Source: an uncultured Eubacteriales bacterium
GTDB taxonomy: Bacteria; Bacillota; Clostridia; Lachnospirales; Anaerotignaceae
NCBI GenBank assembly: GCA_902406135.1
Contig: CABPCX010000108.1
Location: 1 to 6,743, forward strand
Direction: 5' to 3'
DNA length: 6,743 nucleotides
The translations under genes and the position numbers were made by a program. This document shows, piece after piece, positions 5,402 through 6,743 of this stretch (positions are counted from its first letter, which is position 1; every line of letters begins with the position of its first letter). The notes beneath the pieces were generated by a model. The model had not been told where the DNA came from. It did no database searches and worked only from the letters and a program-made list of their open reading frames with translations.

Positions 5402-5536
5402 CTTTATAACCCTTTCAAATTTTCATTAAAAGACGTTTTATCGAAATTGGTGTCTCTGAAGACAACTCATTATCTAAATTCTTTCGGACTCGGCTATCAA
5501 AATTCCGATCTCCGAATCCTATCTAAATATTTCATT
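5402..5536 (-). other. gyrA leader region
   Basis: 135 nt between the hairpin array and the gyrA start, with no coding potential noticed. It contains an imperfect hairpin at 5483-5516 (6-bp outer stem TTCGGA/TCCGAA and 4-bp inner stem TCGG/CCGA around an 11-nt loop) and a small 5-bp hairpin at 5451-5464 (TGTCT/AGACA). The gyrA ribosome binding site AAAGGG is at 5410-5415. The leader is long enough to hold a separate gyrA promoter. Confidence 0.5.
5471..5500 (-). promoter_or_regulatory. Weak candidate sigma-A promoter for gyrA
   Basis: On the minus strand TTGATA (5495-5500, five of six to the -35 consensus) is followed after 18 nt by TAGATA (5471-5476); an overlapping GATAAT (5469-5474) fits the -10 consensus better but at a 20-nt spacing. 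The -35 hexamer falls in the loop of the imperfect hairpin at 5483-5516. By-eye match only. Confidence 0.22.
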
Positions 5537-5689
5537 CACCCTGTGAATTCACTTCACAGGGTGTCCGTTCTCTAAAATCCTGCCTGTGCCTGAAACAAAA
5601 AGTTTCTTTTAGGAACTTTTTGTTTCCTCACCGACTATGCAGTAACTTCCAAGCCGAAAACCCGTTTTCGGCTTAACAAGCACTCCGTC
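5537..5689. repeat. Modular hairpin array, copy 1 (gyrA-proximal)
   Basis: A 153-nt unit made, in plus-strand order, of hairpin X (5537-5563: 11-bp stem CACCCTGTGAA/TTCACAGGGTG, loop TTCAC), a 28-nt linker, hairpin Y (5592-5626: 15-bp stem GAAACAAAAAGTTTC/GGAACTTTTTGTTTC with one wobble, 5-nt loop), a 24-nt linker (5627-5650), hairpin Z (5651-5674: AAGCCGAAAAC/GTTTTCGGCTT around CC) and a short joiner (5675-5689). None of the hairpins is followed by a clear T-tract on either strand, so they do not look like ordinary terminators. No open frame of note was seen across it. Which strand, if either, is the functional one cannot be told. Confidence 0.88.
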
Positions 5690-5869
5690 CGCTGCGGAAA
5701 TTCATTTTCCGCAGTGTCCGATAAATTTTCCTTCGCCCGTGCCTGAAAATAAAAGTTTCTCCTGGGAACTTTTATTTTCCTCACCGACTATGCAGTAACT
5801 TCCAAGCGAAAATCCCTCAGGATTTTCGCTTCAAGCCGAAAACCTGTTTTCGGCTTAACAAGCGCTCCG
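5690..5869. repeat. Modular hairpin array, copy 2 (gyrB-proximal) with one extra hairpin
   Basis: A 180-nt second copy of the unit. Hairpin X is at 5690-5716 (11-bp stem, loop TTCAT), then a 28-nt linker, hairpin Y (5745-5779: GAAAATAAAAGTTTC/GGAACTTTTATTTTC), a 24-nt linker (5780-5803) identical to that of copy 1, an extra hairpin (5804-5831: AAGCGAAAATCC/GGATTTTCGCTT, loop CTCA), hairpin Z (5833-5856: AAGCCGAAAAC/GTTTTCGGCTT around CT) and a 13-nt joiner differing from copy 1 at one base. The 27-nt length excess over copy 1 is the extra hairpin plus one base (29 nt), less a joiner shorter by 2 nt. The unit ends five bases from the gyrB stop codon; a small AGCGC/GCGCT hairpin (5861-5873) covers the junction. 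Confidence 0.88.
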
Positions 5870-5874
5870 CGCTC

Positions 5875-6743
5875 TCAATAATCCATCTCCGCATACTGCG
5901 CATTCTCTGCAATAAACTCACGTCTGGGCTCTACATTGTCACCCATAAGCATACTGAATATCTCATCGGCAGTAATGGCGTCTTCCAGGTCTACTCTCTT
6001 TAATATTCTGTGTTCAACGGCCATGGTAGTATCCCTGAGCTGGTCGAAGTCCATTTCTCCAAGACCTTTGTATCTCTGTACTTCCTTAATGCCTGTCCTG
6101 CCTATTTCGGCATAGAGAGCTTCAAGCTGCGCATCGTCATATACGTAATAGTGCTGTTTGTTTTTCTCAACTCTGTAAAGGGGAGGCTGAGCGATATATA
6201 CTTTGCCTTCCTTTATGAGCTCGGGCATATATCTGTAGAAGAATGTCAGAAGCAAAGTTCTGATATGGGCTCCGTCCACGTCGGCATCGGTCATGATGAC
6301 GATTTTATGGTATCTGAGCTTTGATATATCGAAATCTTCGGAAATTCCCGTTCCGAAGGCTGTTATCATATTTTTTATTTCCTCGGAATTAAGTATTCTG
6401 TCAAGTCTGGCCTTCTCAACGTTAAGTATTTTACCTCTTAGGGGAAGGACAGCCTGGGTTCTGGGGTCTCTGGCCTTGATGGCTGAGCCGCCGGCTGAAT
6501 TACCCTCTACGATGTAGATTTCACATTCCGTAGGGTCCTTGCTTGTGCAGTCCGTAAGTTTTCCGGGAAGCTTTGTATTTTCAAGGCCTGTTTTTCTTCT
6601 TACAAGTTCTCTGGCCTTTCTTGCGGCGTCCCTGGCCCTGGAAGCCAAAAGTCCCTTTTCAAATATGGTCTTGGCCACCGAAGGATTTTCCTCAAGGAAA
6701 TACTCAAGTTTTTCGGAAAGCACCGAATCAACGGCTGTTTTAG
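5875..6743 (-). CDS. gyrB: DNA gyrase subunit B, C-terminal part (runs off the right edge)
   Basis: The last 289 codons of gyrB, including the stop; the N-terminal ATPase domain lies beyond the window edge, and the frame is open to the edge (reading ...[14 protein letters not shown]). Visible features are the [13 protein letters not shown] stretch, the TOPRIM domain with EGNSAGGSA (about 6484-6510) and the metal-binding DADVDGAHI, the [15 protein letters not shown] motif, and the C-terminal [10 protein letters not shown] and VEPRREFI motifs that contact GyrA. The GyrB type is supported by YKGLGEMD and by the gyrA gene downstream, as ParE pairs with parC. The usual EGDSAGG aspartate is replaced by asparagine, and the next stretch reads SAIKARD instead of the common SAKQGRD. 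The GTG at 6723 is internal, not a start. No terminator with a T-tract follows, so readthrough into gyrA is likely. Confidence 0.97.

What the first reader, a model, noticed from the sequence alone, without database searches (positions are those of the whole stretch)
5537..5869. Two-copy modular hairpin element with fixed spacing between gyrB and gyrA
The gyrB-gyrA gap is filled by two copies of a unit built from hairpins X, Y and Z. The X-Y linker is 28 nt in both copies, the Y-Z linker is 24 nt and identical in both, X always has an 11-bp stem and a 5-nt TTCAY loop, and Y always has a 15-bp stem and a 5-nt loop. Such an architecture resembles composite REP/BIME-like or small non-autonomous elements, but I recognise no named family. 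Possible roles include RNA stability or processing between gyrB and gyrA, a mobile repeat, or a protein-binding DNA element. In E. coli, BIME repeats are bound by DNA gyrase, which makes the location next to the gyrase genes worth a look, though this is only an analogy.
Basis: partly seen in the sequence, partly recalled or inferred. Interest (0 to 1): 0.78.

Follow-up and report, generated by a model that had tools for sequence, protein, structure and literature searches.

The report
Terminator-targeting mobile hairpin repeat family
Between the two gyrase genes of an unnamed bacterium related to Anaerotignum lie two copies of a hairpin repeat that occurs dozens of times in related genomes, often right behind stop codons, and that in over a third of the copies checked in two more distant relatives sits between two copies of a predicted transcription terminator, so it is likely a small mobile DNA that would home in on gene ends.

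Summary
They belong to a dispersed family: a covariance model from 60 copies finds 28, 55 and at least 57 copies in three related draft genomes. Stems change by compensating substitutions; the Y core (AAAAGTTCC..GAAACTTTT) and X core (GGAARTGAATTCC) stay fixed. Copies mostly follow a gene on the same strand (106 of 135) and often start at its stop codon (57 of 110 within 21 nt; 8.4 expected). Wobble pairs favour the antisense strand, 161 G.T against 35 A.C, so that strand likely folds. In two other genera of the family the same element lies between direct copies of a predicted terminator hairpin (16 of 42; control 1 of 603), and seven orthologues of one such gene, without the element, read as having one terminator. 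I conclude: a new family of non-autonomous mobile repeats that likely targets gene ends and terminators, unusual because the duplicated target is a whole hairpin (23-43 nt). Hairpin targeting as such is known (IS1272). The enzyme is unknown: six families searched give no match in G001 and G004; an IS30-type lead in G011 is unresolved. The gyrase link is probably incidental.

The parts
5537..5872 (-). whole two-unit array, read in gyrB/gyrA sense from W to X; the strand that appears to fold is the + strand
   Evidence: R1 matches at 5533-5676 (+, 89.1 bits) and 5686-5833 (+, 81.8 bits)
5537..5563 (+). hairpin X of unit 1, loop TTCAC
   Evidence: X core conserved in the alignment
5592..5626 (+). 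hairpin Y of unit 1, with the family's fixed T.G wobble
5627..5650 (+). 24-nt Y-Z linker, identical in both units
5651..5674 (+). [not shown]
5690..5716 (+). hairpin X of unit 2, loop TTCAT
5745..5779 (+). hairpin Y of unit 2
5780..5803 (+). 24-nt Y-Z linker of unit 2
5804..5831 (+). [not shown]
5833..5856 (+). [not shown]
   Evidence: family D2
5862..5872 (-). short hairpin W (GCGCGGAGCGC) beside the gyrB stop codon
   Evidence: W touches the stop codon in many relatives
5875..5877 (-). gyrB stop codon (TGA)
5402..5532 (-). rest of the gap up to the gyrA start, not matched by the model

Best explanation
The gyrB-gyrA array consists of two tandem copies of a dispersed family of four-hairpin repeats (W-Z-Y-X), which is likely a non-autonomous mobile element that inserts at the 3' ends of genes, at or beside their terminator hairpins, and would be copied through a single-stranded intermediate folded on the strand antisense to the upstream gene. 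Shown: dispersal, compensating stem changes, grouping of copies by genome, same-strand position at stop codons, antisense-strand wobble bias, and in G011/G041 direct copies of a hairpin on both sides of the element. Inferred: that these hairpins are terminators (read from sequence), that the element moves by transposition, that the hairpin is the target and is cut at its two bases so that the duplication is as long as the hairpin, that an enzyme acts in trans, and that the window's array grew from one insertion by local duplication. In a gyrBA transcript the hairpins would be passengers that may affect gyrA expression; this is untested.
For: Dispersed: Y-core pattern 14, 17 and 52 matches in G001, G002, G004, reversed-pattern control 0; R1 28, 55 and 57 matches, with 57 candidates scored per genome, so 55 and 57 are lower bounds. 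Structure: 23 of 35 predicted pairs have at least one sequence with both sides changed and the pair kept, 62 copies. Grouping: 141 of 143 copies have their nearest relative in the same genome. Position: left gene on the same strand in 106 of 135 copies that have a called one; within 21 nt of its stop codon in 57 of 110, against a mean of 8.4 and a maximum of 18 in 5000 random placements. Strand: antisense-strand G.T 161 against A.C 35 outside the invariant pair, 298 against 36 with it; the sense-strand MAFFT alignment agrees, A.C 65 against G.T 24. Duplications in G011/G041: 16 of 42 copies score 14 or more, 1 of 603 mismatched flank pairs; among 24 elements with both ends set, 10 score 16 or more with 23-43-nt duplications 0-4 nt from the ends, control 0 of 922 (5 of 922 at 14); 9 of those 10 fold end to end, 547 of 4000 random windows. 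Empty sites: for one such gene 7 of 7 orthologues read lack the X motif within 500 nt and read by eye as having one terminator (seven of 53 other genomes with a match). Homology of the G011/G041 form: R1 matches full length and in the expected orientation in 26 of 32 loci at E of 0.01 or better, best 2.6e-8 (loci chosen by the X motif or the right end).
Against: No enzyme is tied to it. G001 and G004 give no match to six families, but drafts are incomplete, and G002, G011 and G041 do hold rve matches, G011 also one TnpB and one reverse transcriptase match. No terminator duplication in the window, and in the main genus only 4 of 67 solitary copies pass, against 6 of 560 in the control; that small excess looks like other flanking repeats. 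So the terminator target is carried over to the window's form by homology. In the extra set G003/G025/G048/G041/G008/G047 only 1 of 14 loci passes at 14, control 1 of 182. In G011 orientation is mixed (left gene same strand 11, opposite 9, none 3); in G041 it is 18, 2, 1. In G002 the X helix goes against the strand bias (5 G.T, 8 A.C), and the A3 alignment was fitted to an antisense-strand model. Copies at orthologous sites are slightly more alike than average in 5 of 7 pairs, so some sites may be inherited. Gene calls are crude ORF calls.
Confidence: 0.67

Rival explanations
1. A functional 3'-end RNA element: the hairpins work in the mRNA or in an antisense RNA (stabiliser, processing site, or barrier against transcription from downstream) and are kept at gene ends by selection.
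For: Same-strand placement at stop codons, 46 convergent against 5 divergent gene pairs, compensating pairs, a T-tract within 12 nt after X in 22 of 50 G002 copies, some shared orthologous sites (gyrB in window, G001, G002, G004).
Against: The sense strand pairs worse than the antisense strand; the bias is alike between convergent (55:11) and codirectional genes (39:9); among upstream genes of 80 copies only six genes were found shared between genomes, copies group by genome; hairpins are duplicated around copies in relatives.
Confidence: 0.2
2. A miniature derivative of a hairpin-targeting insertion sequence with a DDE transposase (IS30, IS1182/IS1272 or IS1202 kind) that acts in trans.
For: IS1272 inserts into terminator hairpins without sequence preference (passages of PMC4923244); IS1202-subgroup elements make 16-28-bp duplications (passages of PMC10132070). 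G011 has three contig ends with the same right end AACTTTTTTGACAGTCTG followed by a hairpin (L272-L274); beside it in L273 lies a stretch 79.5% identical over 72 nt to the flank of a gene annotated as IS30-family transposase in a Treponema plasmid. G011 ends CAGGGTGTC and GACAGTCTG are imperfect inverted repeats.
Against: IS1272 deletes part of the hairpin and makes no duplication; duplications here follow the hairpin (23-43 nt); NF033594 not over its cut-off in 8 genomes; G001 and G004 have no rve match. In L273 the IS30-like stretch may be a second insertion, and the full element was not seen.
Confidence: 0.25
3. A REP/BIME/REPIN system moved by a RAYT-like Y1 transposase, now lost or unassembled.
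For: Inverted pairs within 400 nt all face with X, none with W, and 28 of 40 paired G004 copies have a 75-78-nt gap, REPIN-like; single-strand folding bias.
Against: PF01797: 0 in G001 and G004, one with an internal stop in G002, 0 in G011. G005 and G032 have 59 and 62 Y1 matches and no R1 match, though G005 has 13 X-core matches.
Confidence: 0.07
4. A purely local duplication in one gyrB-gyrA gap.
For: The 24-nt linker was found only in the window.
Against: Dozens of copies elsewhere.
Confidence: 0.01

Closest known systems
REP / BIME / REPIN elements
   Same: Extragenic, hairpin-forming, high copy, mostly behind coding regions, inverted pairs and clusters (abstract of PMC3733652; passages of PMC3116915)
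   Different: Four linked hairpins instead of one 20-40-bp palindrome; no Y1 transposase match in G001 and G004; fixed orientation to the gene in the main genus; hairpin duplications in relatives
BOX elements of Streptococcus pneumoniae
   Same: Modular composite repeat with a variable number of inner modules, predicted stem-loops, thought parasitic (passages of PMC3049150)
   Different: Modules and placement differ as far as described there; sequences were not compared
IS1272 / TnSha1 (IS1182 family)
   Same: Inserts into terminator hairpins with little sequence preference (passages of PMC4923244)
   Different: IS1272 carries a transposase, cuts blunt, deletes part of the hairpin and makes no duplication; here a whole hairpin is duplicated and the element is non-coding
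MITEs
   Same: Short, non-coding, imperfect inverted ends in G011, flanking duplications
   Different: Parent element not established; duplication as long as the target hairpin
IS1202 family, long-duplication subgroup
   Same: Target duplications of 16-28 bp
   Different: NF033594 not over cut-off; duplications reach 43 nt and track a palindrome
Group IIC introns
   Same: A terminator or attC stem-loop lies just upstream of the insertion site (passages of PMC7923331)
   Different: No reverse transcriptase match in G001, G002, G004, no Rfam intron match; no target duplication expected from intron homing (recalled)
Integron attC sites
   Same: At gene ends; only the bottom strand folds and acts (passages of PMC7923331)
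   Different: Scattered behind single genes such as gyrB; attC boxes not recognised (by eye, recalled)

Membership tests
REP/REPIN | RAYT (Y1) transposase in the genome | tested here: not met
   PF01797: 0 in G001, 0 in G004, 1 with TGA in G002; drafts may be incomplete
REP/REPIN | inverted pairs with a spacer | tested here: met
   56 copies in X-facing pairs, none W-facing; 28 of 40 in G004 with a 75-78-nt gap
REP/REPIN | GTAG or CGTC tag beside a 20-40-bp palindrome | not tested
   no scan made
MITE | terminal inverted repeats | tested here: inconclusive
   G011 ends match at 7 of 9 positions by eye; not found in the window's form
MITE | target-site duplication | tested here: inconclusive
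   met in G011/G041, 16 of 42 and 10 of 24; not clear in G001, G002, G004 and not found in the window
MITE | related autonomous element | tested here: inconclusive
   six enzyme families searched; three G011 contig ends share the right end, one beside an IS30-like stretch, not resolved
IS1272/IS1182 | insertion into terminator hairpins | tested here: met
   G011: 10 of 24 copies between two hairpins, 9 of 10 folding end to end; terminator nature read from sequence only
IS1272/IS1182 | partial deletion of the hairpin, no duplication | tested here: not met
   whole-hairpin duplication
IS1202 family | ISNCY/IS1202-type transposase | tested here: not met
   NF033594 not over cut-off in 8 genomes
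Group IIC intron | intron RNA structure / reverse transcriptase | tested here: not met
   Rfam none; PF00078 0 in G001, G002, G004, 1 in G011
attC | integron integrase and cassette array | not tested
   no integrase search made
BOX | boxA-boxB-boxC sequences | not tested
   no sequence comparison with BOX made

The most novel reading that the evidence does not exclude
A mobile element that recognises folded intrinsic terminators and is inserted by cutting both bases of the hairpin, so that each insertion duplicates the gene's complete terminator whatever its length, moving as a single strand read from the antisense side and served in trans by an enzyme not yet described for this reaction.
Probability: 0.25. 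Interest if true: 0.85.

Novelty: new variant of a known kind. Interest (0 to 1): 0.64.

Why it matters
If right, it gives a repeat that colonises gene ends with little harm because a working terminator is left on both sides, and a natural assay for hairpin-directed insertion that duplicates rather than deletes the hairpin. It would also explain part of the hairpin-rich intergenic DNA in this family. It makes two questions testable: what enzyme cuts a terminator at both bases, and which strand is the moving intermediate.

Tried and rejected
Exact linker searches: none in genome or viral contigs. Plasmid and phage collections with the window gap: no match. Rfam: three weak chance matches in the window and, in 20 loci of relatives, only a SAM riboswitch. 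Enzymes: Y1, TnpB zinc ribbon, reverse transcriptase, ISNCY_2, rve, IS110, none tied to the element. Sense-strand mRNA element as main reading: set back because A.C mismatches exceed G.T on that strand. Target duplications in the main genus: looked for, not clear. The first duplication script gave two artefacts from loci cut at a contig end (L237, L239); they were dropped and the count redone on 42 copies. Of the 24 elements at least two (L255 minus strand, L233 plus strand) look spurious and were left in the count. Literature: ten searches listed no description of this repeat or of whole-terminator duplication; searches did bring up IS1272, which targets terminator hairpins with deletion. The library holds open-licence papers only. 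Gene names such as dnaA and CapA are recognised by eye and recalled, not searched.

Full report
What is there. The window holds the end of gyrB, gyrA and three further genes on the minus strand. Between the gyrB stop codon (5875-5877) and the gyrA start (5401) lie two units of hairpins. The gyrB-sense strand folds far better than shuffles, z = -10.6. A short hairpin W touches the gyrB stop codon, and the unit next to gyrB has a second Z-like hairpin.

Not local. gyrA relatives led to genomes G001 (Candidatus Metalachnospira gallinarum, L001), G002 (isolate SUG1366, L002), G003 (Anaerotignum sp. MSJ-24, L003) and, in the same genus, G004. The Y-core pattern occurs 14, 17, 0 and 52 times in G001, G002, G003, G004; reversed control 0. 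An alignment of 62 copies shows fixed cores and changing stems: 23 of 35 predicted pairs have a kept pair with both sides changed. A covariance model of 60 copies (R1) matches 11 of 58 genomes of the family at E of 0.001 or better, under strict filters: G004 57, G002 55, G001 28, G003 11, others 1-5 (57 candidates scored per genome). The X core CGGAARTRAATTCCG is in 27 of 58 genomes; the reversed control has two hits in all.

The gyrB-gyrA gap. It holds two copies in the window, a 154-nt tandem array of 2.9 copies in G001, one copy in G002 and one behind gyrB in G004 at a contig end. In G003 and some other relatives the gap is short and empty. Sites change: the CapA-like gene of the window has no element behind it, its counterparts in G001 and G002 do (orthology to the window by eye).

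Position. R1 over 100 of the fetched sources gave 146 matches, 143 distinct. With crude ORF calls the left neighbour is on the same strand in 106 of 135 copies that have one (8 have none). Gene pairs: 40 (+,+), 19 (-,-), 46 convergent, 5 divergent, 33 with one side uncalled. Of 110 copies with both neighbours, 57 lie within 21 nt of a same-strand stop codon; random placement and orientation in the same gaps gives 8.4 on average and at most 18 in 5000 trials. For 45 solitary copies it is 22 against 4.7. Inverted pairs within 400 nt are all X-facing; 28 of 40 paired G004 copies have a gap of 75-78 nt.

Which strand folds. In the sense-strand alignment A.C mismatches outnumber G.T 65 to 24, apart from a C.A in Y present in 62 of 62. 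From the antisense strand over 143 copies: G.T 161, A.C 35, plus the near-invariant T.G (137 of 143). Counting distinct helix variants only, 108 against 31. The bias is alike in convergent (55:11) and codirectional (39:9) settings; it fails for X in G002 (5:8). The antisense strand is therefore the better folder, as DNA or RNA I cannot tell.

Spread. 141 of 143 copies have their nearest relative in the same genome. Seven copy pairs at orthologous sites are 0.51-0.64 identical, against averages of 0.54-0.59 for the same genome pairs; five of seven are slightly above. Among upstream genes of 80 copies, eight cross-genome matches cover six shared genes. This fits bursts with turnover; gene conversion and some inheritance remain possible.

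The telling relatives. In G011 and G041 the same order W-Z-Y-X recurs, with Y core GTTCC..GAAAC. I read 20 regions from each, chosen by the X motif out of 47 and 36 matches. R1 matches full length in the expected orientation in 26 of 32 of these and later loci at E of 0.01 or better; three more are weaker and three match only in part. Here a hairpin that reads as a gene's terminator often stands directly before the element and again directly behind it: 16 of 42 copies, 11 of 21 in G011 and 5 of 21 in G041, against 1 of 603 mismatched pairs. For 24 elements with both ends recognised (nearly all G011), 10 have 23-43-nt duplications 0-4 nt from the ends, control 0 of 922 at a score of 16 and 5 of 922 at 14. 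Nine of ten fold end to end against 547 of 4000 random windows. In 14 loci of other genomes one G025 copy passes at score 14 and one G003 copy at 12, controls 1 and 4 of 182. For one G011 gene, orthologues are in 53 of 56 other genomes searched; the seven fetched have no X motif within 500 nt and read as a single terminator behind the stop codon.

Mechanism. The simplest account is an element that takes terminators as targets. If both strands are cut at the 3' base of an extruded hairpin, filling in duplicates the entire hairpin, whatever its length. Because terminators sit close behind stop codons, the position in the window's genus would follow, with W as what remains of, or replaces, the terminator. 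This last step is inference: no clear duplication is seen in G001, G002, G004 or the window.

The missing enzyme. G001 and G004 have no match to Y1, TnpB zinc ribbon, reverse transcriptase, rve or IS110 models, and ISNCY_2 is over cut-off in none of eight genomes. G002, G011 and G041 have rve matches, G011 also one TnpB and one reverse transcriptase match. While checking this report I found three G011 contig ends that carry the right end AACTTTTTTGACAGTCTG followed by a hairpin but other inner DNA (L272-L274). Beside it in L273 lies a stretch resembling the flank of genes annotated as IS30-family transposase in plasmids of Treponema saccharophilum and Latilactobacillus curvatus (Pfam finds an HTH_38 domain in both and an rve domain, over its cut-off in one). 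It may be the parent or a second insertion next to a hairpin. Because of this and of the rve matches I lowered the novel case from 0.30 to 0.25 and raised the rival of a DDE insertion sequence.

Known kinds. It works like REP/REPIN, BOX and MITE repeats but fails or leaves open a defining feature of each. Insertion into terminator hairpins is known for IS1272, which deletes part of the hairpin and makes no duplication (passages of PMC4923244). I file the window's feature as a member of a new family of that broad kind, with an unusual target duplication. The gyrase connection proposed by analogy with BIMEs has no support beyond the position itself.

Noticed in passing
L004, L005, L008, L010, L018, L028: gyrB-gyrA gap: In other Anaerotignum-like genomes the same gap holds different hairpin repeats (for example TTAGGGACGCTGTCCCTAA and AAGGGCTTTGCCCTT types), so the gap seems to collect unrelated hairpin repeats.
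   Followed up: no
L272 (minus), L273 (minus), L274 (plus), at the contig ends: Three G011 contig ends share the right end of the element followed by a hairpin, but with other inner DNA; one lies beside an IS30-like stretch.
   Followed up: partly
L002 about 440-640; L035, L039, L142: A further repeat (GAGAGCAAACCGGGAGAATGTACC...) lies behind or inside the X position of several G002 copies.
   Followed up: no
L220-L239: G011 copies carry optional nested modules inside Y and behind X, giving element lengths of about 230, 290 and 350 nt.
   Followed up: partly
window 5481-5519: A further imperfect hairpin lies between the array and gyrA (TTCGGA...TCCGAA), seen by eye; not matched by the model.
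   Followed up: no
G004 contigs C41, C118, C200, C247, C309: Several copies sit at the very ends of contigs, so near-identical copies probably break the assembly and counts are too low.
   Followed up: no
L203:925-1027: A SAM riboswitch lies shortly downstream of a G041 copy.
   Followed up: no
G005, G032: Two genomes of the family with 59 and 62 Y1 transposase matches have no match to the repeat model.
   Followed up: no
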